Source: Vitreoscilla filiformis
GTDB taxonomy: Bacteria > Pseudomonadota > Gammaproteobacteria > Burkholderiales > Burkholderiaceae_C
Direction: 5' to 3'
Length of the DNA stretch: 64,000 nucleotides
Assembly: GCF_002222655.1 (NCBI RefSeq)
Contig: NZ_CP022423.1
Location: 682,001-746,000 of the forward strand
Shown: positions 14,356 through 35,732 of the stretch, piece by piece
Layout: every line of letters begins with the position of its first letter
How positions within the stretch are numbered: position 1 is the stretch's first letter
Notes under the pieces: generated by a model
The model's input: only the letters and a program-made list of their open reading frames with translations
The model's database searches: none
What the model was told of the DNA's origin: nothing
Position numbers and translations under genes: made by a program

Positions 14356-14358
14356 ACC

Positions 14359-15051: not shown

Positions 15052-15054
15052 GCC

Positions 15055-15639: not shown

Positions 15640-15646
15640 GGCATCC

Positions 15647-17769: not shown

Positions 17770-19380
17770 ATGCCTGCCAGCACCATCGTTGATCAGCACG
17801 GCCGCCCGTTTGAGGTGGCTCCGATGCAAGAGCAGCAGACCGCCCGCGTGGCGATGTTGCAGCGCGACTGGGCCACCCACCCGGCCAAAGGGCTGACCCC
17901 AGCACGACTGGCCAGCATCCTGCAAGACGCCGAGCAGGGTCAGCCAATGGCCCAGCTCGACCTGGCCGACGACATGCTGGAGCGCGATGGCCACGTTTAT
18001 GCCGAGCTGGACAAGCGCGCTGCCGTGGTGGTGGCCACGCCGCACCAGATCGCCCCGCCACCCAACGCCAGCGCTGCCGAGAAAGCGTTGGCCGAGGAAG
18101 TGGCTGAATGGGTGGAGGAGCTGCCGCTGGCGCAGATCAAGAAAGCGGCGATGGATGCCGTTTTGAAGAGTGTTTCAGCCCAGGAAATCCGCTGGGAGAT
18201 GCAAGGCGGGGCGCTGCTGCCCGTCAGCTTTGAAGCGCGTCCCACGCGCTGGCTGTGCCCGGACGAGCGCGGCACCCGCTGGAACCTGCGCGATGGTTCC
18301 AGCGCCTACGGCCAACCGTTGCTGCCGGGTTGTTGGCTGCTGCACCGTCACCGCAGCTTGAACGGCTACATGACCCGTGACGGGCTGGTGCGGGTGCTGG
18401 CCTGGCCGCATCTTTTCAAATGGGCCAGTGACACCGACCTGATGGAGATTTTGGAAATTCTGGGTATTCCCATGCGCATCGGCACCTTTCCGGTGGGTGC
18501 GAGCGACACGGAGAAAAGCCGCCTGATGCAGGCTGTGGTGAGCCTGGGGCGCAATGCGGCGGGGATCATGCCTGCTGGCATGAAGATCGATCTCATCAAG
18601 GGGGCTGAGGGCACCGAGGGGCCCTACCTGTCGATGGCGCAGCGCATGGACGCGGTGCAAAGTAAAGTGATCGTGGGGCAAACGCTCACCAGTGGCGAGG
18701 GCCAGCACGGCACCCAGGCGCTGGGCAATGTGCACAACGAGGTGCGCATGGACATCCGCGATGCCGATCTGGCCCAGCTCGCCACCACGCTGACCCAGCA
18801 GTTGCTCTGGCCGATGGTCGCGCTCAACAAACCCGGTGTTGACCCACGCCGCGCCCCGCGCTGGAAGTGGCTCACCGACCAGGCCGAAGACCTGAAGACG
18901 TTTGCCGAAAACCTGCCGAAGCTGGCCGCCGGGGGAATGCGCATTGCCGTGTCGTGGGCGCACGATCGGCTCAAAATTCCGATGGCGGCGGAAGGTCAGG
19001 CGGTGTTGGGTGCTCCCGCCCCCGCACCGTTGCTCGTTCCGCCCCCGCAGCCGGCGCCTGCCCCGGCCCCCAAGGCCGCTGCCGCACGCGGTGCCCTGCC
19101 GCCCACCCCAGCCCATGGGCCGCATGATGTGCTGGATGATGTGATCGAGGCCGAGCTGACGCACTGGAAGCCGCTCATGGCGCCGCTGGTGCAGCCGCTG
19201 CTGGATGAGATTGACAAAGCGGCGGCATCGGGCGAATCGTTGGAGAGCTTGCGGGCACGTATGGCGCAAATGGCTGCGCGCATGGATACACGTCCCCTGG
19301 GTGAGGCCATTGCTCGTGCGGGGCAGAAGGGCGCTGTGTTGGGAGCAGCGGATGTCAATCTGACCCAACCGGGGGTGTGA
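17770..19380 (+). CDS. Portal protein (DUF935, Mu gp29-like)
   Basis: The 536-residue protein matches DUF935 portals: ATRLASILQDAEQG-like start (here LTPARLASILQDAEQGQPMA), the DMLERDGHVYAELDKRAAVV segment, and KVIVGQTLTSGEGQHGTQAL in the middle. A Pro/Ala-rich linker (about 415-445) precedes a helical C-terminal part. The portal forms the ring through which DNA enters the head. A 157-bp gap before it holds no evident gene. Confidence 0.9.
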   Translation: MPASTIVDQHGRPFEVAPMQEQQTARVAMLQRDWATHPAKGLTPARLASILQDAEQGQPMAQLDLADDMLERDGHVYAELDKRAAVVVATPHQIAPPPNASAAEKALAEEVAEWVEELPLAQIKKAAMDAVLKSVSAQEIRWEMQGGALLPVSFEARPTRWLCPDERGTRWNLRDGSSAYGQPLLPGCWLLHRHRSLNGYMTRDGLVRVLAWPHLFKWASDTDLMEILEILGIPMRIGTFPVGASDTEKSRLMQAVVSLGRNAAGIMPAGMKIDLIKGAEGTEGPYLSMAQRMDAVQSKVIVGQTLTSGEGQHGTQALGNVHNEVRMDIRDADLAQLATTLTQQLLWPMVALNKPGVDPRRAPRWKWLTDQAEDLKTFAENLPKLAAGGMRIAVSWAHDRLKIPMAAEGQAVLGAPAPAPLLVPPPQPAPAPAPKAAAARGALPPTPAHGPHDVLDDVIEAELTHWKPLMAPLVQPLLDEIDKAAASGESLESLRARMAQMAARMDTRPLGEAIARAGQKGAVLGAADVNLTQPGV

Positions 19381-19381
19381 C

Positions 19382-21043
19382 ATGCCCATGCTGAACCTGG
19401 GCCAGATGACACCCCGCGATGCCGTGCGTGTGTTTGCAGAGCGCGGCGATCTGCTGCCGTCGTTCCGATGGCAGGATGTGTTCCAGGACGAACACGCGCG
19501 CGGCGTGGCCGTGGCTGGCGTAGCGCGGCTGGACATCCTGAACTTGTTCCAGGGCACGCTCGACCAGGCCATCCAGGAGGGGCGGGGCGACAAATGGTTC
19601 CGCGAGGCCATGCGGGGCGAGCTGGTGGCCAAGGGATGGTGGGGTGACATCGAGATCACCGACCCTGAAACGGGGGAGGTTCGCACGACGCGGTTTGATG
19701 ACCGTCGCCTGAACCTCATCCTCGACACCAACACCCGCATGACCCATGCGGCGGCGCGCTGGCAGCGCATGGAACAGCAGAAGGCCCGCAAGCCCCTGGG
19801 GCTGTACCAGACGATGCACGATGGGCGGGTGAGTGCCCAGCATGCGTTGTATGACGGGGTCTGCCTGCCGTTGGACGACCCATGGTGGAACACACACTAC
19901 CCACCGTGCCGCTACCGCTGCCGCTGCCAGGCGTTTTCACTCGACGAAAAAGAGTTGCAAAGGCGCCAGGATGCCGGGCAAACGATCAAGCGGACTGCGC
20001 CGGCTGAGCCCGACATCGAGTACATCCACCCCGGCACAGGCGAGGTGATGCAAGTGCCCATCGGCGTGCACCCGAACTTTGCCTACAACCCTGGCAGGGC
20101 TGGGATGCGGGACAAGGGGCTGGTGGATGCCATCAAAGCCACGGCGCCACTGTTGCCTCCCCAGGTGGCGCAGGTGGTATTGGCTGACATCGTGCGCGCC
20201 ATGCCCGACTTGGCGCCTCAGCTCAGCACGCCACTGACGCCGCACCAGTTTGCTCAGGGGCTGAAGGATGCGCGGCTGGAGCCCTACGAAATCACCCCTG
20301 CCCAACTGCATGCCCTCACAGACGGGCGACTGGATCCGCAGGCCCTGGTGCGCGCCATCACTGGCACAGATCAATTGCCACCACCTGTGATGGGTGGGGA
20401 AAACGCATCGTGGATGGTGGTGATGAAAGAGCGCAATGGGCCGGGTGTGACGGTGCGCGGGCACAACGTGCCAATGCCAGGCGGGACAGCCACGATGCTC
20501 ACGCAGACGTTCGACTTCAACACGGGCACGGCCCGGCTGGATTTGCTGGAACTGCCCGAGGCCATGCAAGGCGCAGGTGTTGTCAAGCGGTTGATGTCGG
20601 CGTTGGTGCCCGAGTACCAGCGCATGGGGATGCGGCGCATCGAGTTGATTGCCAACCTGGACGTGGGCGGCTACGCCTGGGCACGCTACGGGTTCGCCCC
20701 CGTGCCCAAGACGGGCACGTTTGCCTATTCACGAGGGGTTGATCCGCTGGCCCTGTTGGCACAGCAGACGCTGCCTGCTGTGGCGCGCCAAGAGCTGGCC
20801 GACTTCCAGAGCGCGTTTGACGCGCTGCAAGACGACAATCGCTGGGTGCGCGACCTGCTGTCAGTGGACACGCCTGCGCTGAATGTCATCCTGGCGGGTG
20901 TGCCGGAATACGCCCACATGCCGGGGGGTGTCACACTCATGAAGGCTCTGCTGATGGGCAGCGCCTGGGAGGGCATGCTGCCCTTTGATGATGCGCTGGC
21001 GATGCGCCACTTCTGGAGTTATGTCCATGCCTCTACCAAGTGA
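19382..21043 (+). CDS. Minor head protein (Mu gpF-like) fused to a GNAT-like domain
   Basis: Residues 1 to about 250 form the Mu F/SPP1 gp7-type minor head domain (MTHAAARWQRMEQQKARKPL, then WNTHYPPCRYRCRCQAF). The remainder, to 553 residues, is unusual. Residues about 345-455 read like an acetyltransferase: a beta segment FNTGTARLDLLELPEAMQ, the acetyl-CoA-loop-like GAGVVKRLMSALVPEYQRMG, then RRIELIANLDVGGYAWARYG and F. This is the GNAT order beta4, loop/alpha3, beta5, alpha4. Minor head proteins of this family often carry enzyme domains that enter the virion. The GNAT call is by pattern only. Confidence 0.8.
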   Translation: MPMLNLGQMTPRDAVRVFAERGDLLPSFRWQDVFQDEHARGVAVAGVARLDILNLFQGTLDQAIQEGRGDKWFREAMRGELVAKGWWGDIEITDPETGEVRTTRFDDRRLNLILDTNTRMTHAAARWQRMEQQKARKPLGLYQTMHDGRVSAQHALYDGVCLPLDDPWWNTHYPPCRYRCRCQAFSLDEKELQRRQDAGQTIKRTAPAEPDIEYIHPGTGEVMQVPIGVHPNFAYNPGRAGMRDKGLVDAIKATAPLLPPQVAQVVLADIVRAMPDLAPQLSTPLTPHQFAQGLKDARLEPYEITPAQLHALTDGRLDPQALVRAITGTDQLPPPVMGGENASWMVVMKERNGPGVTVRGHNVPMPGGTATMLTQTFDFNTGTARLDLLELPEAMQGAGVVKRLMSALVPEYQRMGMRRIELIANLDVGGYAWARYGFAPVPKTGTFAYSRGVDPLALLAQQTLPAVARQELADFQSAFDALQDDNRWVRDLLSVDTPALNVILAGVPEYAHMPGGVTLMKALLMGSAWEGMLPFDDALAMRHFWSYVHASTK

Positions 21044-21260
21044 CTTTGACCCGTTTGCAGGCGATGCCCTGCGGCCTCGCGGTGATGCCATGTACCAAAT
21101 GGTGGGAGGTAGGCCGACCAATGCGGCGCTGCACCACTCCATCCTCGACGGCGGCCCCGCTGAGGTCGATGAGGAGTTGATGGCGGCAAACCGCGCCCGT
21201 GCGATTGACGGGGGCGTACCGGTGGATGTAGCGGAGCGGTTGTTCAAGGTTAAAAAATGA
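21021..21260 (+). CDS. Small protein between minor head and morphogenesis genes
   Basis: The 79-residue frame starts inside the end of the minor head gene (ATG at 21021) and its stop overlaps the next ATG as ATGA. It is acidic in the first half and helical, ending PVDVAERLFKVKK. Such short coupled genes occur here in Mu-like phages. Function unknown. Confidence 0.55.
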   Translation: MSMPLPSDFDPFAGDALRPRGDAMYQMVGGRPTNAALHHSILDGGPAEVDEELMAANRARAIDGGVPVDVAERLFKVKK

Positions 21261-21802
21261 GCAACGACGCCGGATTGGTCGGGGATTTGATTGGTGAAGA
21301 GCGGCTGCTGGCGCTGTTGCGCCAAGCGGTTCAGCGACTGGACAACCTCCAACCGATGTTGGAAAACATCGGAGCAGACTGGGAAGGGCGCATCCGAGAG
21401 CGGTTCAGCACCAAGCAAGCGCCAGACGGCAGTGCGTGGACGGGGTTGTCCCCCGCTACGCAGAAGCGGTACGACGCTGAAGATAAGGGCCGCAGCCAGG
21501 GCACTTTGCTGGAACGCACGGGGACGATGCGGGACTCGTTGGCGTCTCAAGTGGATAACCGCGACAAGACCGCACCGACGCTGGAGGTGCTCATGTCCCG
21601 TCGGTCACACGGCGGAAAGACGGGGCCACTGGGCGGTGAGTGGAGCATCCCCCTGTTGCACGAATACGGCACCCACCGCATGCCGCGACGTGGGTTGTTC
21701 ACTGCTGACCCGGAGCAGGGTGAGCTGGCGCCGGTAGATCGGGACGCTATTTCGGATGAGGTGGCGCACTGGCTTGCGGCCTCATTTACCAATCCAACCT
21801 GA
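21257..21802 (+). CDS. Phage virion morphogenesis protein (Mu gpG-like)
   Basis: The 181-residue protein has the family signature FSTKQAPDGSAWTGLSPATQ near the middle and LLHEYGTHRMPRRGLF later, as in Mu gpG and P2 gpS-type morphogenesis proteins. These proteins work at the head-tail interface. It is coupled to the preceding small gene (ATGA). Confidence 0.88.
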   Translation: MSNDAGLVGDLIGEERLLALLRQAVQRLDNLQPMLENIGADWEGRIRERFSTKQAPDGSAWTGLSPATQKRYDAEDKGRSQGTLLERTGTMRDSLASQVDNRDKTAPTLEVLMSRRSHGGKTGPLGGEWSIPLLHEYGTHRMPRRGLFTADPEQGELAPVDRDAISDEVAHWLAASFTNPT

Positions 21803-21833
21803 GATATGAGCTTTCAGGCGCTGGCCCGAGCAT

Positions 21834-22973
21834 GTGGCCATGCGCTACTTGCTCGCCCTCCTCTCCTCCACCCTGGCCCTGTCGGGCAGTGCTGATACCT
21901 CCCAGGTGCAGGTGCTGCCGTTTGGCGAGTTTGCTGCGCGTGACGGCAGGCCAGGCCCAGGCAAGACCTGGAAGCTCACCGACGCTCAGGGCCGCGCCCT
22001 GGCTGCCAAGCTGAACGCCACGGCGGCCAAGACGCCGCTGGTAATCGACTACGAACACCAAACCCTCCAAGCCGAGGAAAACGGCAAGCCGGCCCCTGCT
22101 GCGGGCTGGATGAAGGCCTTCGCCTGGCGCGATAGGCAAGGCCTGTGGGCCACCACTGACTGGACGGAGGCCGCCAAGGGGTACATCGCAGCGCGCGAGT
22201 ACCTCTACATCAGCCCCGTGCTGCGCTACGACCCGGCCACCGGCGACGTGGTGGGCCTGGAGATGGCCGCCCTCACCAATTACCCCGCACTGCTGGGCAT
22301 GGCTGCCGTTGAGGCACGCCTGCGCGCCCAGCTCCACCCCCAGGAGCCCACCGACATGGATTTGCTCAAGCTGCTGCAAGCCCTGTTCAACCTGCCCCAG
22401 GCCACGGCCGAGCAGATGCACAGCCACATCACCACCCTGAAAGCCAAAGCCGAGCAAGACGCCGCCACGGCCACTGCTGCCGCTGCGCTCAAGACGGCGC
22501 TGACCCAGCTCAAGACCGACCTGGGCCTGCCAACCGAAGGCGACATCACCGCCCCGCTGGCGGCGCTCAAGACCAAGCTGAATGGCGGCACGGGCGATGC
22601 CGCCGGCATGGAGGCCCTGCGCGGCATGTTGGCCACGACCCAGAGCGAGCTGGCCACGCTCAAGGCAAGCGCCCAACAGCGGGAGCTGGATGAACTGCTG
22701 GCCGCTGCCATCCCCACCAAGTTCGTACCGGCCATGCGCGCCGCGCTGGAAAAGCTGGGCAAGACGGACATCGCCCAACTGCGCGCGATGGTGGAGGCCC
22801 AGCCTGCGATGAACGCCCCGCTGCTGGATGGCCAGAACGGCGGCAAGAGCCCGCCGCCGGGCGACCCCAATGCTGAGCTGAATGCGACCGAGCTGGGCGT
22901 GTGCCGCGCGATGGGTCTCACCCCCGAGGCCTACAAGAAGCAAAAAGTGGCGATGGCTGCGGCCAACGCCTGA
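21834..22973 (+). CDS. Head maturation protease with scaffold domain (Mu gpI-like)
   Basis: The 379-residue protein begins (GTG at 21834 or ATG at 21840) with the protease domain, marked by TPLVIDYEHQTLQAEENGKP and YISPVLRYDP. From about residue 175 it becomes a helical, Ala/Lys-rich scaffold region and ends with a PNAELNATELGVCRAMGL motif. In Mu, gene I encodes the protease and, from an internal start, the scaffold Z. The same arrangement is seen here (start at 22356). Confidence 0.88.
   Translation: MAMRYLLALLSSTLALSGSADTSQVQVLPFGEFAARDGRPGPGKTWKLTDAQGRALAAKLNATAAKTPLVIDYEHQTLQAEENGKPAPAAGWMKAFAWRDRQGLWATTDWTEAAKGYIAAREYLYISPVLRYDPATGDVVGLEMAALTNYPALLGMAAVEARLRAQLHPQEPTDMDLLKLLQALFNLPQATAEQMHSHITTLKAKAEQDAATATAAAALKTALTQLKTDLGLPTEGDITAPLAALKTKLNGGTGDAAGMEALRGMLATTQSELATLKASAQQRELDELLAAAIPTKFVPAMRAALEKLGKTDIAQLRAMVEAQPAMNAPLLDGQNGGKSPPPGDPNAELNATELGVCRAMGLTPEAYKKQKVAMAAANA
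22356..22973 (+). CDS. Internal scaffold protein start (Mu gpZ-like), in frame within the protease gene
   Basis: An in-frame ATG at 22356 is preceded by CAGGAG at 9 bases. Translation from it would give a 205-residue, mostly helical protein, exactly the scaffold part of the larger protein. This mirrors Mu, where the scaffold is made from an internal start of the protease gene. The start is inferred from the ribosome site and position. Confidence 0.6.
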   Translation: MDLLKLLQALFNLPQATAEQMHSHITTLKAKAEQDAATATAAAALKTALTQLKTDLGLPTEGDITAPLAALKTKLNGGTGDAAGMEALRGMLATTQSELATLKASAQQRELDELLAAAIPTKFVPAMRAALEKLGKTDIAQLRAMVEAQPAMNAPLLDGQNGGKSPPPGDPNAELNATELGVCRAMGLTPEAYKKQKVAMAAANA

Positions 22974-23004
22974 CCCACCCTCCTGACCGCACCGAGGCGC
23001 ACCC

Positions 23005-23433
23005 ATGACTGCTCTCACCTCTGATCGCAACGTCCGCACGAAGGGCTGTGGCCCGCGTGTGTTCCCCGTCGGCGCCAGCATGTTGCTGTACGCCGGCGCG
23101 CTGGCCGCCATAAATGCCAGCGGCTACCTCGTCAAGGGCAGCACCAGCACCACGCTGCGCGGCGTGGGCGTCATCACCCGCCGCGTGGACAACTCCACCG
23201 GTGCCAATGGCGATGTGAAGGCCGAGGTGTCGGCGGGCTGCTGGCCGTTCAAGAACAGCACCAGCACCGACCAGATCACCCGCGCCCACATCGGCATGAC
23301 GCCCTACATCGTGGATGACCAGACCGTGGCCCTGACCTCGGGCAGCTCCACCCGCAGCACCACGGGCGGCCAGATCTGGGATGTGGACGACGACGGCACC
23401 GTCTGGATCTTCTGGGGCGGCGACGAGTGCTGA
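23005..23433 (+). CDS. Probable head decoration or structural protein
   Basis: The 142-residue protein is beta-rich with a central GDVKAEVSAGCWPFKNS and a C-terminal IGMTPYIVDDQTVALTSG / WDVDDDGTVWIF pattern found in Mu-type head proteins encoded just before the capsid. It most likely sits on the capsid surface. The family call is from position and pattern. Confidence 0.65.
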   Translation: MTALTSDRNVRTKGCGPRVFPVGASMLLYAGALAAINASGYLVKGSTSTTLRGVGVITRRVDNSTGANGDVKAEVSAGCWPFKNSTSTDQITRAHIGMTPYIVDDQTVALTSGSSTRSTTGGQIWDVDDDGTVWIFWGGDEC

Positions 23434-23480
23434 TGCAGCACTGAAGCCACGCAACCAACAGTCTCAAGGACACACGCACC

Positions 23481-24371
23481 ATGCAAGTCACCACCCACAA
23501 CCTGCGCACGCTCAACGTGGGCTACAGCGCGGCGTTTGCCGAAGGCCTGGGCGCTGCCCCGGCGATGGGTTTGCAGTTCGCCACCCCGGTGCCCAGCACC
23601 ACAGCCGAAGAGGAATACGCCTGGCTGGGCTCGACCACGAGTTTCCGGGAATGGCTGGGTTCCCGGCAGTACCAAAGCCTGGAAGAGCACGGCTACACGA
23701 TCAAAAACAAGGAGTTTGAAAACTCGTTCAAGGTCAAGCGCACGGCCATCGAAGATGACCAGCACGGTGTTTACGCCCCGGTGTCGCGCCAGCTCGGCCA
23801 AGATGCTGCGCTGCACCCGGATGAACTGCTGTTTGGCCTGCTGCAATCTGGGTTCGACACCAAGTGTTTTGATGGCCAGTACTTTTTCGACACCGATCAC
23901 CCGGTGGGTTTGGCCGGCAACCAGTCCAGTTTCTCGAACTACGACGGCGGCTCGGGCACGGCGTGGTATTTGCTGGACACCTCGCGCTACATCAAGCCGC
24001 TCGTGTTTCAAAAGCGCCGGGACTACGCCTTCAACGCGATCACCAACATCAACAGCGAGCGCGTTTTCGAAATGAACGAGTTCGTTTGGGGCGCTGATGC
24101 ACGGGTGAATGTGGGTTTTGGCCTGTGGCAACTGGCCCGTGCCAGCCGCCAGACGCTGGACGTGAGCAACTACGCCGCCAGCCGCGCCGCAATGATGAAT
24201 GTGCGCAGTGACGCCGGGAAACCCCTGGTGGTGCGCCCCTCCGTGTTGCTGGTGCCTCCCTCGCTGGAGCGCCAAGCGCTGGACATCCTCACCGCCGAGC
24301 GTCTGGCCAACGGCCAGAGCAACACCATGCGGGACACCGCCAAGGTGGTGGTTTGCCCCTGGCTGTCCTGA
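23481..24371 (+). CDS. Major capsid protein (Mu gpT-like)
   Basis: The 296-residue protein matches Mu-like major head subunits: N-terminal FAEGLGAAPAMGLQFATPVP, the EEYAWLGSTTSFREWLGSRQ block, and a C-terminal VVRPSVLLVPPSLERQALDI. It forms the icosahedral shell after scaffold-guided assembly. Its length is about the usual 300 residues. Confidence 0.93.
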   Translation: MQVTTHNLRTLNVGYSAAFAEGLGAAPAMGLQFATPVPSTTAEEEYAWLGSTTSFREWLGSRQYQSLEEHGYTIKNKEFENSFKVKRTAIEDDQHGVYAPVSRQLGQDAALHPDELLFGLLQSGFDTKCFDGQYFFDTDHPVGLAGNQSSFSNYDGGSGTAWYLLDTSRYIKPLVFQKRRDYAFNAITNINSERVFEMNEFVWGADARVNVGFGLWQLARASRQTLDVSNYAASRAAMMNVRSDAGKPLVVRPSVLLVPPSLERQALDILTAERLANGQSNTMRDTAKVVVCPWLS

Positions 24372-24405
24372 GCCGGCCTTTACTGAACATCAAGGAAACC
24401 ACGTC

Positions 24406-24711
24406 ATGGGTATCAAGCAAGTGCAGGCGCTGGCGATTGCGGCCACGTCTGAAAAGGGTTTTCGCCGCGCCGGTCGTTTCTGGGGGCCGGGCACCCAAAA
24501 GGTGCCGGTGGGTGAATTCACCGAAGCGCAACTGGCCGCCCTGCGCGATGAAGCCGGCAAGGGTTTGGTGGTGGTGGACACCACGATGGAAATCGAGGTG
24601 CCCGATGCTGCCAAAGCCCCGGCTGAATCCCCCGCTGCTGCATCGGCTGCTGGTGCCGCACCGCCCGCTGAAGATCCCGCGCCGGCCAAGCCCGCCAAGG
24701 GCAGCAAGTAA
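24406..24711 (+). CDS. FluMu-type head protein
   Basis: The 101-residue protein starts with a conserved GFRRAGRFWGPGTQKVPVGE / FTEAQLAALRDEAGKGLVVV unit, as in the small FluMu protein that follows the capsid gene, and ends in a disordered Ala/Pro/Lys tail. The role is probably structural. AAGGA precedes the ATG at 24406. Confidence 0.75.
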   Translation: MGIKQVQALAIAATSEKGFRRAGRFWGPGTQKVPVGEFTEAQLAALRDEAGKGLVVVDTTMEIEVPDAAKAPAESPAAASAAGAAPPAEDPAPAKPAKGSK

Positions 24712-24748
24712 CCGCGCTCCCTGAGCGCAGCCGAAGGGAGCCCGCCCC

Positions 24749-25168
24749 ATGAGCTACATCACCCCAGCGGATTTGTTGGCCGAGTTTGGCGAGGACGAGA
24801 TGATCGACCTCACCGACCGCGCCACGCCCCGCACCCACGCTGTGGATACCGCTGTGGCCCAACGCGCTTGCGACCGGGCCAATTCGGAGGTGGATGCGGT
24901 GCTGATGGGGCGCTACACGCTGCCACTCTCATCGGTGCCGGTGCTGCTGCGCTACATCGCGCAGGATCTGGCGTATTTCTATTTGCACCTGGGCACGCCG
25001 CCCGAGCACATCAAAACCCGCTACGACACGGCGCAAAAGAACCTGGGTTTCATCCGCCGAGGTGAATTGCAATTGGGTGTCGATGCAGTGGGTGCGCCGC
25101 TGGTGGATACCAGCAGCAATTTGCCAGCCGTGGTTTCTGACGGGCGCAACTTCAAACGGGGTTATTGA
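24749..25168 (+). CDS. Head-tail connector (DUF1320, Mu gp36-like)
   Basis: The 139-residue protein begins SYITPADLLAEFGEDEMIDL and contains VDAVLMGRYTLPLSSVPVLL and YDTAQKNLGFIRRGELQLGV, the DUF1320 signature. These proteins lie at the head-tail joint. Its stop overlaps the next start (TGATG). Confidence 0.88.
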   Translation: MSYITPADLLAEFGEDEMIDLTDRATPRTHAVDTAVAQRACDRANSEVDAVLMGRYTLPLSSVPVLLRYIAQDLAYFYLHLGTPPEHIKTRYDTAQKNLGFIRRGELQLGVDAVGAPLVDTSSNLPAVVSDGRNFKRGY

Positions 25169-25623
25169 TGGGCGCCCCGAACAACTCGGCATGGGCGGCG
25201 GACTTCCTTTTTGTAGGACGTGCCATGGCGGCGCGGCTGGCTGCGAGTGTCCCTGCGCTGCGTGAGAGTTTGATGGTGGATGAAATCGAACCGACAGCCA
25301 CCAGGACGCGCCAAGTTCCTGCGGCTTTGGTGATGCTGCATGACCAATCCCCAGACGGCGGGGGGGATGGGTATTCGGACGTGTCTGTGGTCAGGCAGCA
25401 ATGGCTGGTGTTCCTGGTCGATAAAACCGGGCGCAATACCGCTGACCGAGGTGGTGAAAAGGTGGGGCCGTTGCTGCCGCAAATTGTCCAATGCCTGCAC
25501 GGATGGCGTGTGCCTGGCACAAGCCGCAATCTGGCATGGGCGCCTGGTGCCCCCACACCGAAGTATTTCCAAGATGGCACCGTGATGTTTCCGCTGCTGT
25601 TTTCAACTCAGTTTTCAGTTTGA
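25168..25623 (+). CDS. Tail terminator-like protein (Mu gp37-like)
   Basis: The 151-residue protein follows the gp36-like connector and has a mixed alpha/beta fold with QQWLVFLVDKTGRNTADRGG and a C-terminal YFQDGTVMFPLLFSTQF ending typical of tail terminators. The terminator caps the tail tube and joins it to the head. Assignment relies on order and overall pattern. Confidence 0.65.
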   Translation: MGAPNNSAWAADFLFVGRAMAARLAASVPALRESLMVDEIEPTATRTRQVPAALVMLHDQSPDGGGDGYSDVSVVRQQWLVFLVDKTGRNTADRGGEKVGPLLPQIVQCLHGWRVPGTSRNLAWAPGAPTPKYFQDGTVMFPLLFSTQFSV

Positions 25624-25643
25624 TTCGCTGAGAAAGGCTTCCC

Positions 25644-26372
25644 ATGAACTCGAAATCATTGCTCCTGGTTGGCAGTCTGTACGCCCGCGCGGTGGGTACC
25701 ACGGGCGCCTTCTTCCCTTTGCTGAATGGCAAGGCGGAAATTACCCACAGCCTGGACACCCAGGACGTACCGAACTACGGCCGCACAGGCGGTGGCAAGG
25801 ATCAAATCCTCTCCCGCGTGAAAGACGTCAAGGTGGAGCTGGAGCTGTGGCGTTGGGACAAGCGGAACTGGGCGCTGGCGTTGGGGGCGCCGGAAAGCGC
25901 CATCGTGGACACCGCCCCGGTGGTCGATGAGGCCCATGTTGCGTATGTGGGCGGCATGGTGCGGTTGAACCATGTCGCGTCGGCGATCACCGGTGTCAAG
26001 GATGCATCCAATGCTGCGTGCATTGAAGGGACGGACTACAAGCTGGTGCCGGGTGGCCTGATCCCCTTGGAAGGCGGCAGCATTGCCGATGGGGAGGCCA
26101 TCAAGGTCAGTTACACCAAGGCCGCGTACATCAACTACCAGGCCTGCACGCGCTTGGATGCCGAGCTGGAGTGCTTTTACGTCGGCGAAAACGAGAACGA
26201 TGGCAACAAGTTGGTGACGGCTGACTTCCATCGCTTGTACGTGCCGCCGACCGACAAGATTGCACTGATGGGCGAAAAGCTGCAAAGCCTGAAGCTCAAA
26301 GCCGAACTGCTGGCCGACACAACGAAGGGCCAAGGCCTCAGCGCGTTCTACAGCCTGCGCGCCCAGGTGTGA
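25644..26372 (+). CDS. Tail tube protein
   Basis: The 242-residue protein has the pattern of siphovirus-type tube proteins: beta-rich, with KDVKVELELWRWDKRNWALA and YINYQACTRLDAELECFYVG, ending LLADTTKGQGLSAFYSL. There is no sheath gene nearby, so the tail should be non-contractile. The stop codon is directly followed by the first palindrome of a palindromic region. Confidence 0.75.
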   Translation: MNSKSLLLVGSLYARAVGTTGAFFPLLNGKAEITHSLDTQDVPNYGRTGGGKDQILSRVKDVKVELELWRWDKRNWALALGAPESAIVDTAPVVDEAHVAYVGGMVRLNHVASAITGVKDASNAACIEGTDYKLVPGGLIPLEGGSIADGEAIKVSYTKAAYINYQACTRLDAELECFYVGENENDGNKLVTADFHRLYVPPTDKIALMGEKLQSLKLKAELLADTTKGQGLSAFYSLRAQV

Positions 26373-26495
26373 TGCCGAACGGTTCGGCATTCTGGGCAGT
26401 GATACCGCACCGTGCGGTGTGACTGCCTATATAAATCAATAACTTAGCTTTGTTTTTACTCCGCACCGTGCGGAGGAATGCCGAACGGTTCGGCA
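26372..26495. repeat. Nested palindrome array A-B-B-A before the tape-measure gene
   Basis: Four perfect inverted repeats lie in 124 bp: A1 ATGCCGAACGGTTCGGCAT (26372-26390), B1 ACCGCACCGTGCGGT (26404-26418), B2 CTCCGCACCGTGCGGAG (26459-26475), and A2 TGCCGAACGGTTCGGCA (26479-26495). Each has one central unpaired base. The 40 bp between B1 and B2 are AT-rich with TATATAAAT and no long frame. A2 ends at the ribosome site (AAGGA) of the tape-measure gene. Element A also occurs twice inside the gene at 8238-9221. Confidence 0.95.
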
Positions 26496-26508
26496 AAAAG
26501 GACGCTGC

Positions 26509-29297
26509 ATGGCAGGCCCCATTGACATCATCCTGAGACTGCGCCTCCTGGCTGACGGTGTGATGTCCGGCCTGAGTGGCATTGGCGCGAAAGTGACGGC
26601 GGTGGCGGCAGCAGTCACCACGTACTTTACGAGCAAGCTGTTTGCCGGCGCGGTGAGCAGCGCGGCCGATTTGGAGGCCAAACTCTCCGAGGTCAAGGCG
26701 GTATCGGGTGCCAGCGCCCAGGAAATGCAGGCCCTGCGCAAAGCGGCTGAGGATGCGGGTGCAACCACCAAATACTCGGCAACTGAAGCGGCCACAGCGC
26801 TGGGTAACCTGACCCGTGCGGGGCTGAGCGCCGATCAGGCAATGCAGGCCCTGCCTGCCACGTTGCAGTTGGCGCAAGCGGGTGGCGTGGATCTGGGTCA
26901 AGCCGCCGAGTTCATCACCAAGGCGGTGATGGGGATGGGGCTGGCGTTTGGCGATGCGGGCCGCGTGGCTGATGTACTGGCCAAAGGCGCCAACGCCAGC
27001 AACACCAGTGTGACGGGGTTGGCTGAGGCGCTGAGCTACACAGCCCCCATTGCCAAGTCGGTGGGTCTGAGCCTGGAACAGACCGTCGCCATCATTGGCA
27101 AGTTCGCCGATGCGGGGATCGATGCCAGCCGGGCGGGCACGGCACTGAATGCGATCCTGAGCCAGTTCAGCGACCCGGCCAGCAAGTTCCGCACGGAGCT
27201 GGGCACGATCGGGATCATCACCAACGACTTCGGCGAGGCGCTGCGCCAGTTGGGCACCAAGGGCGCCGTGGGTGAGCGCGCCATCTTGGCGGTTGGGACG
27301 GAGGCGGGGCCGGCGCTGCGGTCACTGTTGAATCAGGGCATCGGGGCACTGGATGAGCTGACGGGGAAGCTCAAAAATGCCAAAGGCAGCGCCGCCGAGA
27401 CGGCTGCTGTGATGGGCGACAACCTGCGCGGGGCGCTGGGTGGGTTGAGCAGCGCGTGGGAAACGGTGATGAATGCCCTGGGCACACCGACGCTGCCCAT
27501 CCTGAAAGACGGTGTGAACCAACTGGCTGCGGCGCTGTCTGCGGCGGTCAGTAATGGGACGGTGGGGAAGTTCGGGGATGCCTTGGCTGCTGCGTTCAAG
27601 GCGGCCATTGAGTGGGGCACCCGGTTTGTAGGCGCGGTGGATTTTGAGGCCGTGTCGGTGCAGTTGCAGACGTTTGCCACCAACCTATCGGTGACTCTGG
27701 ACGACCTCGGCGCCAAAGCCAAGAACGCCGGCAACGTGGTGCAGACCGCGTATGGGGTGATGAGCGCCGGGGGCAACACAGTACTGGCGGGCGTGTATGT
27801 GCTGGGTGCGGGGTTCTCCAGCTTGGTTCAGTCGGCGCAGGCCTGGTACGCGTTGTACCTGGACATGATGTCCAAGGTGACATTTGGCGAAGTCAGTGCC
27901 CGGTACAAACTGGCGGCCGACGAGGTGCGCGTCAGTGCAGCGGCCTCTGGGGCGGCCACGGATGCATTCATGGCCAAGGCCCGCCAGGCAATGGATGACG
28001 CTGCCACAGCGGCTGAGAGTGCCCAATCGGGTTGGGATGGTCTGACGCAATCGCAGACGCAGGCTGCGGCCCAGGCACCGAAGGTGGTGCAGGCGCAGGC
28101 TGATGTGAAGGCGGCGGTGGAGGCCACCAGCTCGGCGGCAAGCGCTGCGGGTGCAGCGGCCAGTGCGGCGGGCGAAGCAGCCAAGACTGGATCGCAGGCC
28201 CAACAAGCGGCGGCGGAGGCGGCGCGCGAAAAGGTGGCCACGTTGCGGGCCGAGTACGAAAAGGCTGTGGACGCGGGCGAATGGCAGCGGGCGGCGGAAA
28301 TTCAGCGGCAGTTGACAGCGGCGCTGCAAGGGACGACAGCAGCCACGAAAGAGAGTGCCGCAGCGGCCAAGGTGGTTGAAGGGGCGTTTGAGCGCCTGGG
28401 GATCACGAGCGTCGATCGGCTCACGATGATGGCGGATGCGGCCAAGCGGGATTACCAAATCATCCGCGATGCGGGCACCACAGCAGCACGAGACAAGCAA
28501 GCTGCGTTTGAGAAATATGCGTCGGCGGCCATCGCTGCCAATGGTGGTGTGGTCACCGCTGAACTGCGGGCGCAGGCTGCGGCGCAGGGGATGGGTGTTG
28601 CAGTGGATGAGGCGGGGCACGCTGTGGTCAAGTCGCTGTCGGCCATTCCCGCCGCTGCTGATGCCGCGACTGAGGCAATGCGGAAGACCCGTGAAGAAGC
28701 TGAGAAAACCGCCTCAGCAGTGGTCGCTGTGGTGAAAAACAGTGCTGTGGAGAAACGCAACGGTGAAGTGAAGTCACTGTTCGATGACGATTACCGCAAG
28801 CGCACCGGAGACGGCACCACCGCTGGCGGCAACACGCTGATGAGCGTGATCAATGACCTCAAGGGCTATGGCTTGGACGACGAAGCGGCGCAGCAGATCG
28901 CCCGCGAGTTTGTGGATGCAAGCGGCAACGTCCCCTACATGAACAACCCCGGCCAACGGAAGTACGGCGGGCCGGGGGGGGGACGCTGTCGTCAGCCCTG
29001 CAAACTGCCGCCAGTCAGTACCTCTACGGCAAGGACGGCCACGGCGGCGAAATGGCCCGGCGTGCCGCTGCCGCTGCGGCCCCCGCACCAGCGCCCGCAG
29101 CGTCGGGCCAGGTGGCGGCGCCTGCGCCTGCGCCATCTGCTGCGCCCACCACATCGCGCACGGTGTACGCCGTGGCCATCACGATCAATCGGGGCCGCGA
29201 AGAGGCCGTGGAGATGGCCTCGCAGGATGACGCTCAGGCCCTGGTGGCGATGCTGCGCCGCCTCGAATCTGACGCCGCACGAGTAGGAGGAGGTTGA
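26509..29297 (+). CDS. Tape measure protein, frame shifted at a G9 run
   Basis: The frame from 26509 shows the TP901-type tape-measure core (SSAADLEAKLSEVKAVSGAS, TKYSATEAATALGNLTRAGL) and long helical Ala-rich regions, about 925 residues. At 28974-28982 nine G bases occur. After them the original frame turns Arg/Pro-rich and ends at 29286, whereas the -1 frame continues sensibly (GKDGHGGEMARR, then TVYAVAITINRGREE) and ends at 29297, just before the next start. So the intact product needs ten G in the gene or a -1 slip on the run. The protein sets tail length and lines the tube. Confidence 0.85.
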
Positions 29298-29299
29298 GC

Positions 29300-29701
29300 A
29301 TGATCCAGTTGAGTGCCAATGGCCTGGTGGTGGTGTTCGGCTCGGGCTGTGCCTGGAGCGATGAGCACAGTTGGAGCCCTGTGGGGCAGACCGTCGAGCG
29401 GTCATTGACCGGGGCGCTGATCGTGCAATCGGCCAGCGCGCCCGCCGAAGCGGGCCGACCGGTGACCCTGCAAGGTGTCGAGCAGGGCGCCGGGCTGGTC
29501 AGCCTGACCGACGTGCAGACGCTGCGCGGATGGGCCGCAGAGCCCGGCCAGGTCATGACGCTGACCACCCCGGACGGGGTGCGCGAGGTGATCTGGCGCC
29601 ACCACGACGCCCCGGCGATCACGGCCGATCCCTATACGTTTTACGACGATCAGCAGGCTGGCGACATGTATGTCGTGACGGCCAAGCTCATGGTCATTTA
29701 A
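29300..29701 (+). CDS. Tail protein, unknown role
   Basis: The 133-residue protein is beta-rich (IQLSANGLVVVFGSG; WRHHDAPAITADPYTFYDDQ; MYVVTAKLMVI). It follows the tape-measure gene with an AGGAGG site 8 bases before the ATG, so it is expressed strongly with the tail genes. Proteins at this place usually join the distal tail to the tip. No family recognised. Confidence 0.65.
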   Translation: MIQLSANGLVVVFGSGCAWSDEHSWSPVGQTVERSLTGALIVQSASAPAEAGRPVTLQGVEQGAGLVSLTDVQTLRGWAAEPGQVMTLTTPDGVREVIWRHHDAPAITADPYTFYDDQQAGDMYVVTAKLMVI

Positions 29702-29715
29702 AGGAGAGACACCAC

Positions 29716-32700
29716 ATGCCCATCCTCTCAGGCGACGTGGTATTGCTGGCATCGGCGGTCATGGCTGATGTGGCCGAAGGCGGCGGTGCTCCCACGGGGA
29801 CGGTGATCAGCGATGCTGAAAACGCGCTGTTCCCGGATATTTCAGAGTTGGATCGTGCAGGGGGGCGGGTCAATCTGCGCAAAACGTTTGTGGCGATCCG
29901 CTCTGACGACACCGACACCTACTTCGGCTCCAACGTGATCGTGGCGCAGCCACCCACGGACGCCAATACGGCCGTCACGCTGTTTGCCCGCGACGCGACG
30001 TTCGACACGCGGTCGGAGGCGCAATCACGCGTGGAGGCGTACCTCAACAAGGGGCCGCTGTGGCCGGGGTATCTGTACGAGGGCCACATCACCGGGCAAC
30101 GTGTGGTGCAACTGTTTCAACGTCCGTCCGAGGCCCCGCCCACGGTGGGGCAGACGTTGGTGTTGGTCAAAGACGAGGGCCTGTCCACGCAGGTGGAGCA
30201 GTACATCCGCGCCATCACGGTGTCCAGCGTCACCCGCACCTTCACCGCCGGCGATGGGTCGGAGTACCAAGCGGCTATCGTGTCCGTTTTCCTGAGCGAT
30301 GCCCTGCGGTTCGATTGCCCCGGCAGCCCCGCCTCCGAGACGTTCGCCCGCCTCAGCACCGCTGCTGCGGTGCGCGATACCGTGGTGGCCGATGCGGGCA
30401 CCTACGCTGGGGTGTCGCCCCTGGCCGAGTCGGTCAGCATGGGGGCGATGAAGATCAAGGCAGAGTCGATCTACTCGCAACTGGTGCCCAGCGCCCAGAC
30501 CGAGGCGCCGCTGTCGGTCATGCCGCCCTATGCGGCTGCTGGGCTGCCGATCCCGGGCGCGGGCAGTGTCACCTACACCGCCACCCATGCGTGGACACCC
30601 ACCACCAAGCTGGCTCTGCCGGGAGGGTGCCTTCCAGGATCACTGTCGATCCAAGTGGCCGGTGTCACGATCACCGACGCTGGCGGGATGTTGCGATCAG
30701 CCGGGGCCGATGTGGGCACCATCGACTACGCCAACGGGCTGCTGACATCCGCCGCAGGGGACTACTCGGCCAGCAAGGTCATCACCTACACCCCCGCAGC
30801 GCAGGTGCTGCGGGTTCCGCAGAGCGCCGAAATCGAGATCACGGCGGCGTCCCGCAGTCAGTCCTACGTGGGGGTGATCGATCCTCAGCCCCAGCCCGGC
30901 ACGCTCTCGGCCAGCTACCGCGCGGGCGGGCGGTGGTATGTGCTGTCGGACGATGGCACCGGCGCGCTCAAGGGCAGCGATGCCAGCTACGGCGCCGGCA
31001 CGTTCAACCCCGCGACGGGCGGCTACATCCTGACGCTGGGTGTGCTGCCGGATGTGGGTAGTTCGGTCATCCTGAGCTGGGGCGCACCGACGCAAGAGAC
31101 CCGGCACCCCACCGCTGTGACGCTCAAGGCGACGCAGACGATCGCGTTGGCGCCGCCGGCTGGAACATCGGTACAGCCGGGCTCAGTGACGGTGTCTTGG
31201 CTGCAAGCGGGCGTGTCCAAGAGCGCCACCGCTGGCGCGGATGGGGTGCTGTCCGGCCATGCCACGGGCACGGTGCGCGTGGCGCAGGGGGTGATCGAGG
31301 CGTTCGCGCCCGCGACCCTGCCCGCCGTAGGGGCGCAGTTGACGATCGGCTATGTGGCCGGCCCCAAGACGTCCGACGCATTTGCACATCCGTCGCGGCA
31401 GGGCGATGGGCGGCTGGCGGTGACAGCTTCGGCGGCCATCACGCCGGGGAGCTTGGAGGTTGAGTGGAACACCGTCACAGACACTGCTGTGCTGGGCACC
31501 TATACCCTGGGCCAGTTGACCGAAATGGGCGTTTCGACGTGGGTCGATCCGACGCAATATGCGCGGGACGACGGCGGCGGAAAAATCATGCGGGAAGGTG
31601 TGCAAATTGGCACAGTGACGTATGCGACGGGAGCGATTACCTGGAATCCAGATGTCACGATCAAATTACCGAGGCCGAAATACAGCGCCGCATTGGACGA
31701 CGATTTATACCGCTGGCGCTTGACCTATACCGGGCTGGAGTATGTGGATGCGCCGTCCATTTACCCAGCCGATGAATCCGGGGCGGTGACCCTGCGGTAC
31801 AACTCGCCCGGCTCGACGAGCACCCGCACCGAGACGGTGACGTTCACCCCGAAGGTGCAACTGGTGCCGGGCGTTGTGGCGCCAGTGGTGCCTGGCACGG
31901 TGGTGCTGACGATCCCCGGATCGCAGCCGTGGGGGGACAGTGGCACGGGTGTGCTGCGCGAAAACACCGTGGCGTCTGGCTGGCTGACGCGGGGCACCAT
32001 CGACTACACCACGGGCGTCATTGCCCTGTCGTCCTGGGCCACGGGGGCGACCAATGCACTCAGCCGGGTGTCGTGCGTCACCACCTTGGGCAATGCGCTG
32101 TCCAGCGAGTTTGTGTTCAGGGCTTCCTCGGCGCCCTTGCGACCGGGATCGCTGTCGATCCAGTGGACGCGCACGACCGGGGGCCCCAAATCGGTCACGG
32201 CGGGGGTGGATGGCGTGATCAGTGGCACCGGCGTGGCGGGCAGCGTGGATTACGAGACCGGGCTGGTGCGGGTGCGGTTCGGGGCGATGGTCACGGCGGC
32301 GGGAAATGAATCCCAGCCGTGGTATTCGGCCAGCCGGGTGGAGTCGGATGGGCGCATCTGGCGGCCCGATCCGATCGTCATGACCACGCTGCGCTACAGC
32401 GCGGTGGCCTACAGCTACCTGCCGCTCGATGCCAGCATCCTGGGCATGGATCCCGTGCGGCTTCCAAGTGACGGGCGGGTGCCGATTTTCAGAGCGGGTG
32501 GGTTCGTTGTGGTCGGTGCCAAAACAGCCGTCACGGCCACCGTGGCCAATGGGCAGACGGTGTTTGCTGGGCGCGAGCGGCTGTCTCGATTGCGCGTGGT
32601 GGGGGCCAACGGTGCGGTGATCAGCACCGGCTACACCACCGATTTGGACGCTGGGACGGCAACCTTCAGCGACGTTTCGGCCTACGCCCAGCCCGTGCGA

Positions 32701-33282
32701 ATCGAAGGGCGCGTGGAAGACATGGCGATGATCCGCGACGTGCAGATCAATGGGGAGATCGGGCTGTCTCGGCCCATCACCCACGACTACTCGGCGCCTG
32801 GAAGTTACGTCTCGACGGCGCTGGTGCTCGGGGATCTGTTTGCCCGCGTGGAGCGCGTGTTTGACCAATCGAGTTGGTTCGGCGCGTGGTCTGACAGCCC
32901 CGAACCGGGTTCAAGCACCCTGGCGGCCTACAACAACGCCGACCATCCCATCCTGATCACAAACCGGGGGGGCATCACGGAGCGCTGGATTGCCCGGTTC
33001 ACCACGACGACGAGCTACGAGCTGATTGGCGAGCATGTGGGTGTCGTGGCCGTGGGTAACACCGGCCAGGACTTCGAGCCGCTCGGGCCATCTGGGGCGC
33101 CCTATATGCACATTCCAGCGGCTGGCTGGGGCGGCGGTGGGTGGTCGGTGGGCGCGATCCTGCGGATCAACACCATCGGTGCGATGGCACCGATTTGGGT
33201 CGTTCGCACGATCAATCCGGGCGCAGCGTATGACACACCGGATCAATTTGAACTGTCGCTGCGTGGCGACGTGGACGCTTAA
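29716..33282 (+). CDS. Large tail/baseplate protein with repeated beta modules
   Basis: The 1188-residue protein starts MPILSGDVVLLASAVMADV after AAGGAGAG. After an N-terminal part of about 280 residues it repeats a module whose hallmark is PGSLxI/V... followed by G(T/S)(I/V)xYxxG: GTIDYANGLL, GTVTYATGAI, GTIDYTTGVI, GSVDYETGLV, and the related TFNPATGGYIL. Such repeats suggest stacked beta domains at the tail tip. A DUF-type or carbohydrate-binding identity cannot be given. The last 150 residues contain a different, less repetitive domain. Confidence 0.75.
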   Translation: MPILSGDVVLLASAVMADVAEGGGAPTGTVISDAENALFPDISELDRAGGRVNLRKTFVAIRSDDTDTYFGSNVIVAQPPTDANTAVTLFARDATFDTRSEAQSRVEAYLNKGPLWPGYLYEGHITGQRVVQLFQRPSEAPPTVGQTLVLVKDEGLSTQVEQYIRAITVSSVTRTFTAGDGSEYQAAIVSVFLSDALRFDCPGSPASETFARLSTAAAVRDTVVADAGTYAGVSPLAESVSMGAMKIKAESIYSQLVPSAQTEAPLSVMPPYAAAGLPIPGAGSVTYTATHAWTPTTKLALPGGCLPGSLSIQVAGVTITDAGGMLRSAGADVGTIDYANGLLTSAAGDYSASKVITYTPAAQVLRVPQSAEIEITAASRSQSYVGVIDPQPQPGTLSASYRAGGRWYVLSDDGTGALKGSDASYGAGTFNPATGGYILTLGVLPDVGSSVILSWGAPTQETRHPTAVTLKATQTIALAPPAGTSVQPGSVTVSWLQAGVSKSATAGADGVLSGHATGTVRVAQGVIEAFAPATLPAVGAQLTIGYVAGPKTSDAFAHPSRQGDGRLAVTASAAITPGSLEVEWNTVTDTAVLGTYTLGQLTEMGVSTWVDPTQYARDDGGGKIMREGVQIGTVTYATGAITWNPDVTIKLPRPKYSAALDDDLYRWRLTYTGLEYVDAPSIYPADESGAVTLRYNSPGSTSTRTETVTFTPKVQLVPGVVAPVVPGTVVLTIPGSQPWGDSGTGVLRENTVASGWLTRGTIDYTTGVIALSSWATGATNALSRVSCVTTLGNALSSEFVFRASSAPLRPGSLSIQWTRTTGGPKSVTAGVDGVISGTGVAGSVDYETGLVRVRFGAMVTAAGNESQPWYSASRVESDGRIWRPDPIVMTTLRYSAVAYSYLPLDASILGMDPVRLPSDGRVPIFRAGGFVVVGAKTAVTATVANGQTVFAGRERLSRLRVVGANGAVISTGYTTDLDAGTATFSDVSAYAQPVRIEGRVEDMAMIRDVQINGEIGLSRPITHDYSAPGSYVSTALVLGDLFARVERVFDQSSWFGAWSDSPEPGSSTLAAYNNADHPILITNRGGITERWIARFTTTTSYELIGEHVGVVAVGNTGQDFEPLGPSGAPYMHIPAAGWGGGGWSVGAILRINTIGAMAPIWVVRTINPGAAYDTPDQFELSLRGDVDA

Positions 33283-33296
33283 ATTGAGGAGATCAC

Positions 33297-34554
33297 ATGG
33301 CCGCATCGGTTTTTTTGGCATGCGAACTACTTGGCAGGGGCGCCGCAGCTCACCAACGCCTGGGGGAGTTTGACGGCGCTGTTGGACGCCTGCTTGGTCA
33401 ATGGGTACGGGGTCAAGACGATCGCCACGCTGACATCGACCGTCGCGGGGGTGGCCACGGCCACGGTCACCGGCGGGCATGCATTCGTGGCCGGGCAGGT
33501 CGTGGAGATTGCCGGCTGCGCGCAGGCCAACTACAACGGCCGCTGGACGGTGCTGAGCGCGCAGGCCACGAGTTTTACTTTTCAGCTCGACGATCCGGGG
33601 TCGATCCGCACGGCGACCACCACCACATCGATCACCGCCAAAACGCCCAGCCTGGGGTGGAGCAAGCCCAACACGGGTACAAACCGGGGCGCCTACCGGG
33701 CCCCCACGGGTAACCGCAACCTGCTGGTGGTGGACAACTCCCAGCGGGCGGGGTACGACTCAGCGTGGGCCAAATGGGCGTCAGTGGGGATCGCATCGGC
33801 GATCAGCGGGATCAATCCGATCGTGGTCACGGGCATCCAAGCGCCGTATGACCCCACCAACCCTGCGCGCAACTGGACGACGGCGGGCACCGGTGGGGAT
33901 TGGGGGTGGGCGAAGTGGATTCACGCGCGGCAGTACGGGTGGCTGAATGAGGGGGACGGCGGCGCCGGTAATCGGGATTGGCTGCTGGTCGGTGATGGCG
34001 TGATGTTCTACCTGTGGGTCAAGGTGTCAACGGGCTGGGGTGGGTTCGCGCAGTACGCGTTTGGGGATGTGTCGTCTTACGTGGCCGCAGGTGACGCGAC
34101 GGGGACGGTGCTGGTGGCAACTGAGAGCGCCAACGAGGATCAGCCCGGTTCCGGCAACAGCTTTGGCCTGGGCGAGTCGCTGGCCTATGCCGGCAAATGG
34201 CTGCTGCGCAACCACACGCAACAGGGGCTCCCCGTCAAGTGCGCGGCCACGCCGGCACTGCACATGGCCAATGGGGTGCTGACATCGGGGCGAGGGCCAA
34301 TGCAGTACCCACACGGCCCGGACAACGGGCTGTGGCTGACGCCGACGCTGTGCGTGCAAGAGGGGATGAACTCCGTCAGGGGGACGTTCCGGGGGTTGTA
34401 TTGGATGCCTCAATACAAGCCGGTCGGGCACGGCGCTGTGTTCGACCAGGTCGTCAGAAACACCACCCGCCGGATGATGGCGGTGGCGTGGCAGGGGTAC
34501 AGCGAGGGTGACGGCGTGACCATGGCCATTGATCTGACGGGGCCGTGGACATGA
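33297..34554 (+). CDS. Tail protein, frame shifted at a T7 run near the start
   Basis: The ATG at 33297 has a GAGGAG site 5 bases upstream, but its frame leads to unlikely sequence after the seven T bases at 33310-33316. With one T fewer the frame reads MAASVFWHANYLAGAPQLTN and joins the long frame that ends at 34554 (about 418 residues). That long frame is rich in beta structure and aromatic residues (GGDWGWAKWIHARQYGWLNE). Homologous phage tail proteins commonly start with a VFWHA/KFW-like segment. Either the run is a sequencing error or the gene is inactive as it stands. Confidence 0.7.
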
Positions 34555-35336: not shown

Positions 35337-35338
35337 CC

Positions 35339-35725: not shown

Positions 35726-35732
35726 GCCGCTC

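What the first reader, a model, noticed from the sequence alone, without database searches (positions are those of the whole stretch)
26372..26495. Nested palindrome array A-B-B-A in front of the tape-measure gene
Two different perfect palindromes (core GCCGAAC-N-GTTCGGC and CCGCAC-C-GTGCGG) are arranged in mirror order within 124 bp around an AT-rich centre, and the last one abuts the ribosome site of the tape-measure gene. The spacing is ordered (A-B centres 30 and 20 bp, B-B 56 bp). This looks like a designed protein-binding or RNA-folding element, not chance. It could act as a late-gene switch, a partition-like site, or a packaging/topology site.
Basis: partly seen in the sequence, partly recalled or inferred. 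Interest (0 to 1): 0.85.

Follow-up and report, generated by a model that had tools for sequence, protein, structure and literature searches.

The report
Own and rival phage tag array
A virus that jumps around bacterial chromosomes carries, beside a tail gene, four short DNA tags: two match the tag that its own DNA-binding protein appears to read, and two match the tag of other, rival viruses, a form of DNA mimicry that would matter for how viruses sharing a cell tell their own DNA from others'.

Summary
The A-B-B-A array is real, exact and beyond chance. It lies in a B3-like transposable prophage (window 657-39339; four near-identical complete copies in this genome). A also occurs twice inside an early gene (8238-9221, minus strand) upstream of the transposase gene. 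In 155 of 163 homologous loci the same two positions are 76 bp apart. They carry palindromes NNNN-AC-n-GT-NNNN, whose four outer bases differ between phages (22 classes) but agree between both sites in 112 of 119 unique pairs. They covary with residues 113, 114 and 118 of the predicted recognition helix of the protein that the gene encodes. So the protein very probably reads palindromes written into its own gene. A is this phage's own class. B (CCGCAC) is the class of other phages. Three other viral contigs hold mixed-class arrays, one with two captured pieces of such genes. I read the array as own plus forged rival "address tags". Binding and effect are not shown; marking DNA as own in transposition is my favoured guess, with decoy, roadblock and RNA-hairpin rivals.

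The parts
26372..26390 (.). A1: own-class palindrome (CCGAAC class)
   Evidence: class defined
26404..26418 (.). B1: foreign-class palindrome (CCGCAC class), with an outer stem 26395-26400 / 26422-26427
   Evidence: class found in 23 other loci
26459..26475 (.). B2: foreign-class palindrome (CCGCAC class)
26479..26495 (.). A2: own-class palindrome, abutting the likely ribosome site of the tape-measure gene
8238..9221 (-). P0001 gene (phrog_4623, no known function), the probable reader of A; first ATG at 9206
9007..9023 (.). gene site 1, own class, around codon 69
8929..8949 (.). gene site 2, own class, around codon 95, 76 bp from site 1
8859..8885 (-). codons 113-121: predicted recognition helix of P0001
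   Evidence: structure model; covariation
5096..7048 (-). transposase A gene, downstream of P0001 (an RdgC-like gene, 6931-7887, lies between)
3552..4781 (-). transposition protein B (AAA ATPase)
25644..26372 (+). major tail protein gene, ends where A1 begins
26509..29286 (+). tape-measure gene, downstream of the array
657..39339 (.). B3-like transposable prophage that holds all of the above
   Evidence: ends from four copies; relatives

Best explanation
The array is a set of binding sites ('address tags') for one family of phage proteins, whose member here is P0001. P0001 reads palindromes NNNN-AC-n-GT-NNNN, its recognition helix setting the outer bases. A phage of this family normally has just two such sites, both inside the P0001 gene, upstream of the transposase gene. 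This phage has, in its late operon, two more own-class sites (A) and two sites of a class read by rival phages (B). Inferred: a pair of sites makes DNA count as 'own' for whichever phage makes the matching protein, most likely in transposition (sparing it from insertion, or helping to build the transposition complex), and the B pair is a forged rival tag. Shown from sequence: the sites, pairing, classes, covariation of helix and site, and other mixed arrays. Not shown: binding and any effect. I hold the identification of the sites at about 0.9 and the self-mark function at about 0.35; the figure below is for the whole.
For: Both sites of a gene share the class in 112 of 119 unique pairs (shuffled mean 15, maximum 27). 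The outer bases are best predicted by residues 113, 114 and 118, which lie in the predicted recognition helix, and this holds in phylogenetically independent pairs with none contrary. Whole records hold two own-class sites in 23 of 24 CCGAAC-class and 14 of 15 CCGCAC-class records, one in the other two, more in none. B is the class of 23 other loci, 21 of them with helix RSVDQVDRDI, while P0001 here has L118. Mixed-class arrays in L214, L321 and L417, the last with captured site-bearing gene pieces. In 11 of 14 class occurrences (perfect sites) in the four elements a class is present twice or more. A transposase A homolog follows the gene in 152 of 163 loci.
Against: No binding or function test. 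Only four arrays, three of them in unnamed contigs. The array is absent from the other phages looked at, so it is not essential to the family. In L417 two perfect classes are single and others are imperfect. How two sites would mark a 38-kb genome is not known. P0001 has no recognised domain and no informative fold match.
Confidence: 0.5

Rival explanations
1. Decoy (sponge): foreign-class sites titrate the P0001-like protein of an incoming or co-resident phage and so hinder it; classes diversify to escape decoys.
For: Mixed arrays of several rivals' classes and captured gene pieces; the class changed at least 78 times on a quick tree of 126 rows.
Against: This phage also carries its own class in the array, which would titrate its own protein. 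Sites mostly come in pairs, which a sponge does not need. Few sites per element.
Confidence: 0.2
2. Transcriptional roadblock or autoregulator: P0001 bound in its own gene stops RNA polymerase and limits the early (transposase) operon; the array does the same between the major tail and tape-measure genes.
For: Sites lie inside the gene, upstream of the transposase gene. Early transcripts of Fc02, which has a homolog, dwindle distally (PMC9936078, section 3.2 read).
Against: It does not explain foreign-class sites in other elements. No promoter-like site found near either place.
Confidence: 0.25
3. RNA hairpin element: the palindromes act in mRNA at the tail junction as attenuator or stabiliser.
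For: Strong folding of either strand (z -7.0 and -6.4). Structured junctions in three of four relatives folded at the junction: L054 z -2.4, L055 -3.0, L056 -3.5, but L053 +0.75.
Against: Any nested palindromes fold well. The sequences are exact members of two site classes. No terminator-like tail. The sites inside the P0001 gene and the other arrays are not at this junction.
Confidence: 0.15
4. Partition-like or DNA-bridging site: P0001 clusters phage copies in the cell.
For: Predicted helix-turn-helix plus a long helical tail; sites in the protein's own gene; paired sites.
Against: No ParB-type domain in P0001 and no ParA-type gene recognised among the early genes scanned.
Confidence: 0.12
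5. Chance or host repeat.
For: B alone with mismatches is at chance level.
Against: Shuffles; in the genome, A pairs lie only in prophage copies.
Confidence: 0.01

Closest known systems
ParB-parS partition systems (recalled)
   Same: A DNA-binding protein with short palindromic sites in or near its own gene.
   Different: No ParB domain found; the sites vary between close relatives together with the recognition helix; foreign sites are collected.
Stoperators of cluster A mycobacteriophages (recalled; PMC6550527 and PMC9283540 seen in the listing only)
   Same: Phage-encoded protein, sites inside the phage genome, specificity that diversifies between phages.
   Different: By the listed abstract those sites are numerous, asymmetric and bound by the immunity repressor; here two palindromes per phage and an early gene that is not the recognised repressor.
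Mu transposition enhancer and Mu genome immunity (recalled; PMC2837660 abstract, PMC5977238 passages)
   Same: Internal sites or proteins of a transposable phage that act in transposition or guard against self-insertion.
   Different: Mu immunity uses MuB; no counterpart of P0001 or of class-variable palindromes is named in what I read.
Mimicry of helper cos or pac sites by phage satellites (recalled, no call)
   Same: An element carries copies of another phage's recognition site.
   Different: Here several rivals' classes stand in one array, mostly as pairs, and this phage carries its own class too.

Membership tests
P0001 family site system (defined here) | Gene carries two AC-n-GT palindromes of one class 76 bp apart | tested here: met
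   window 8929-8949 and 9007-9023
P0001 family site system (defined here) | Array sites belong to classes of the family | tested here: met
   A = CCGAAC (37 loci, own class), B = CCGCAC (23 loci)
P0001 family site system (defined here) | Protein binds the sites | not testable with these tools
   covariation only
ParB-parS | ParB-type domain in the binding protein | tested here: not met
   no such Pfam match for P0001 or among the families shown for 33 relatives
ParB-parS | ParA-type ATPase beside it | tested here: inconclusive
   none recognised among the 15 early-region proteins scanned, not all small genes scanned
Mycobacteriophage stoperators | Many copies spread over the phage genome | tested here: not met
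   two sites in most records; six here, in two places
Intrinsic terminator | G+C-rich hairpin followed by a run of T | tested here: not met
   none found in 26250-26620
Mu-type transposition enhancer | Sites bound by the transposase or a partner and needed for transposition | not testable with these tools
   needs a transposition assay; the transposase gave no solved-structure match
Host repeat (REP-like) | Many copies across the host chromosome outside prophages | tested here: not met
   18 of 22 exact A cores in prophage copies, 4 singles elsewhere; reversed control pattern 2

The most novel reading that the evidence does not exclude
B3-like phages carry a self-written, hypervariable address: a protein and the two DNA tags that it reads are encoded within about 170 bp, so specificity can be exchanged as one unit. 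Rivals collect these addresses in arrays, even by capturing pieces of the gene, so that the rival's protein treats their DNA as its own (for example spares it from insertion) or is disarmed: a DNA-address arms race between phages.
Probability: 0.45. Interest if true: 0.95.

Novelty: categorically new. Interest (0 to 1): 0.86.

Why it matters
If true, it gives a natural catalogue of protein-DNA specificities in which each protein's gene carries its own target, so a helix-turn-helix recognition code can be read from genomes and tested. It also points to a new kind of conflict between phages, in which elements store rivals' DNA tags, and makes testable how transposable phages that share a cell tell own DNA from other DNA.

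Tried and rejected
Host repeat: rejected. Terminator or promoter at the array or at the gene sites: none found by simple scans.

Search for more arrays: three pattern scans of viral contigs, seeded with CCGAAC, CCGCAC or GGTAAC and a second site within 34 bp (87, 73 and 90 stretches), plus one A-B scan; arrays of other classes or wider spacing are not covered. One search printed 16 loci with two or more perfect sites close together: two strong arrays (L214, L321); four pairs of two different known classes (L221, L251, L272, L294), set aside because L221 and L272, which I read, lie in long open frames, while L251 and L294 were not read; and ten with an unknown class or one class only. One search added L417 (kept) and L389 and L398, repeats of one class (not counted). 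Eighty tape-measure relatives of L417 gave no array but its own record. Single foreign-class hits in G307 and G322 were read and not counted. Array DNA of L214 and L321 in phage and plasmid records: no match.

Eleven distant homologs (L034, L047-L050, L112, L115, L117, L118, L120, L125) lack the standard pair; seven of them carry one palindrome with a CGAC half-site some 90-110 bp after position 1. One search stopped with an error and was redone. In one search my coordinates for L379 missed the junction; its hairpin was read by eye only.

Full report
Observation. The four palindromes are exact and at the stated places. In 200 dinucleotide shuffles of the 38,683-bp prophage no 124-bp stretch held more than two perfect AC-n-GT palindromes; the array has four. 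B alone, with mismatches, is not above chance. Both strands fold strongly as RNA (z -7.0 and -6.4), as nested palindromes must.

Where it is. Comparison with other stretches of the genome gives a prophage at 657-39339 with three further complete copies (aligned pieces 99.95-100% identical) and a 9-kb partial copy at the start of contig C1; the array region is 100% identical in the four. Mor, GemA, DUF3164, transposase A, an AAA transposition protein, major tail and tape-measure genes, and protein matches to Beetrevirus JBD67 and other Pseudomonas phages, make it a B3-like transposable phage.

The lead. Palindrome A also occurs twice, 76 bp apart, inside an early gene on the minus strand. Its protein, P0001, matches phrog_4623, of no known function; no Pfam or NCBIfam family reached its cut-off. 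JBD67, JD18, Komp_PAO1_1, JBD25 and SS2019XII carry palindromes at the same two positions: two with the CCGAAC core as here besides this phage, three with other cores. I collected 163 loci with homologs (this phage, 6 phage records, 2 G-handle genomes, the rest genome contigs and IMG/VR contigs; some are the same phage twice). In 155 of 163 the positions are 76 bp apart (6 at 82, 1 at 88, 1 at 73). The usual site is NNNN-AC-n-GT-NNNN, with 22 classes of outer bases among 128 distinct genes. Of 125 unique pairs with spacing 76, 119 have the AC core at both sites, and in 112 of these the two 6-base half-sites are identical; 1000 shuffles gave 15 on average and 27 at most. In some members the centre has 0 or 2 bases instead of 1. 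The two sites lie in different reading frames, so the likeness is at the DNA level. Eleven distant homologs lack the standard pair.

Who reads the site. Outside the codons that overlap the sites, the outer bases are best predicted by residue 113 (n1, 0.75 bits), 114 (n2, 0.50; n3, 1.19) and 118 (n4, 1.17); the best of 115 columns away from the helix-turn-helix reached 0.15, 0.34, 0.62 and 0.24 (for n2 and n3 this is A64, next to site 1). Arg113 goes with G at n1 in 30 of 30, Asp114 with G at n3 in 63 of 64, Glu118 with G at n4 in 30 of 31 and Arg118 with C at n4 in 23 of 24 genes (sums). The fit for n2 is weak. Among pairs 90% or more identical elsewhere, the helix is 47% identical if the class differs (160 pairs) and 95% if it agrees (63 pairs). 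On a tree made without sites and helix, supported independent pairs go the same way in 7.7 of 8, 8.8 of 9, 6.0 of 7 and 11.5 of 12 on average (for R113/n1 G, E118/n4 G, R118/n4 C, D114/n3 G), the other way in none; sign test p about 0.008, 0.004, 0.03 and 0.0005. The class changed at least 78 times among 126 rows (128 columns, quick tree). A structure model of the core puts helices at residues 102-108 and 113-121, in blocks of mean pLDDT 91-95, and long helices on either side. So the gene very probably encodes the reader of the sites inside it. Sites and recognition helix lie within about 170 bp, so that one exchange of DNA could move them together (inference).

How many sites a phage has. Whole records: two own-class sites in 23 of 24 CCGAAC-class and 14 of 15 CCGCAC-class records, one in the other two. 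Of 6 records of other classes one held a single CCGAAC site, and of 15 CCGAAC-class records searched for CCGCAC one held a single site; these two stand alone. Many records are fragments. Other classes were only checked within the loci held: one extra own-class site (L130) was seen. A transposase A homolog lies downstream on the same strand in 152 of 163 loci, in 149 within 1.5 kb; in 11 none was found, for some because the contig ends.

What the array is. A is this phage's own class. B, CCGCAC, is the class of 23 other loci, 21 with helix RSVDQVDRDI. P0001 here has L118, which goes with A at n4, so B should be foreign to it. All five P0001-family matches in this genome are copies of this gene, one 98% identical in the partial prophage, so no B-class reader was found here; six single CCGCAC sites elsewhere in the genome are scattered (14 in all, 8 in array copies; control 4). 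At this junction JBD67 has chaperone genes; no AC-n-GT palindrome lies near it in six IMG/VR tape-measure relatives or in the stretches held of five genomes with related tape-measure DNA. A next to B was found only here among 399 genomes of the order.

Other mixed arrays. L214: nine perfect sites of four classes in 220 bp (CCGAAC, CCGCAC, GCTGAC, CCAAAC in a 110-bp repeat), upstream of a Mor-like gene. L321: nine perfect sites of five known classes in 577 bp, including CGCGAC-CCGCAC-CCGCAC-CGCGAC, the same mirror order as here, plus one site of an unlisted class, downstream of a tape-measure gene. L417: perfect GGTAAC and GCGAAC sites plus three imperfect ones just after its tape-measure gene, and two pieces of P0001-like genes (about residues 58-112 and 48-95) that keep little but the site pair, CAAGAC twice (perfect) and A/G-GAAAC twice (one mismatch each), 76 bp apart; no whole gene in the record. 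Of 14 class occurrences (perfect sites) in the four elements, 11 are twice or more. Background: 40 perfect palindromes in 1.14 Mb of 80 tape-measure loci, 7 of known class, 4 of these in L417's own record.

Mechanism. From sequence: variable self-embedded sites, a matching reader, mixed arrays. I favour transposition because the gene precedes the transposase gene; because transposable phages need self-protection (Mu: PMC2837660, abstract; Ab30 of the D3112 group, 0.4% of insertions in itself: PMC5977238, passages); and because mixed arrays in pairs look like forged marks. A sponge explains foreign but not own sites; a roadblock explains gene sites but not foreign ones; an RNA hairpin may be a second role at this junction, where three of four relatives folded there are structured. 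Dwindling early transcripts in Fc02, which has a homolog, fit a roadblock without proving it (PMC9936078: abstract, passages and section 3.2).

Limits. No binding test; four arrays; L214 and L321 are short fragments; the survey for arrays was seeded with three classes; literature limited to open-licence papers.

Noticed in passing
G000 C1:1-9000 (L016): A partial fifth copy of the prophage (99.99% identical over 9 kb) ends at the start of contig C1, perhaps an assembly break in a repeated prophage.
   Followed up: no
window 6931-7887: An RdgC-like gene stands between P0001 and the transposase gene, where most relatives have none (distance 1966 bp here, median 638 bp).
   Followed up: partly
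window 26373-26508: No tail-assembly chaperone gene between major tail and tape-measure genes, unlike JBD67 and JD18.
   Followed up: partly
L214 3162-6611: Two neighbouring genes both match head protease/major head families (phrog_29592, phrog_4523), an odd duplication.
   Followed up: no
L221 2780-3080: Several CGAAC-n-GTTCG-like palindromes inside one long open frame (2645-3886, minus strand); possibly another self-embedded site family, possibly codon use.
   Followed up: no
L389 7334-7400: Four GGTAAC palindromes 18 bp apart in a tandem repeat of a viral contig.
   Followed up: no
L034, L112, L117, L118, L125 (and L115, L120): Distant P0001 homologs carry a single CGAC-core palindrome about 90-110 bp after position 1, perhaps an older one-site form.
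   Followed up: partly
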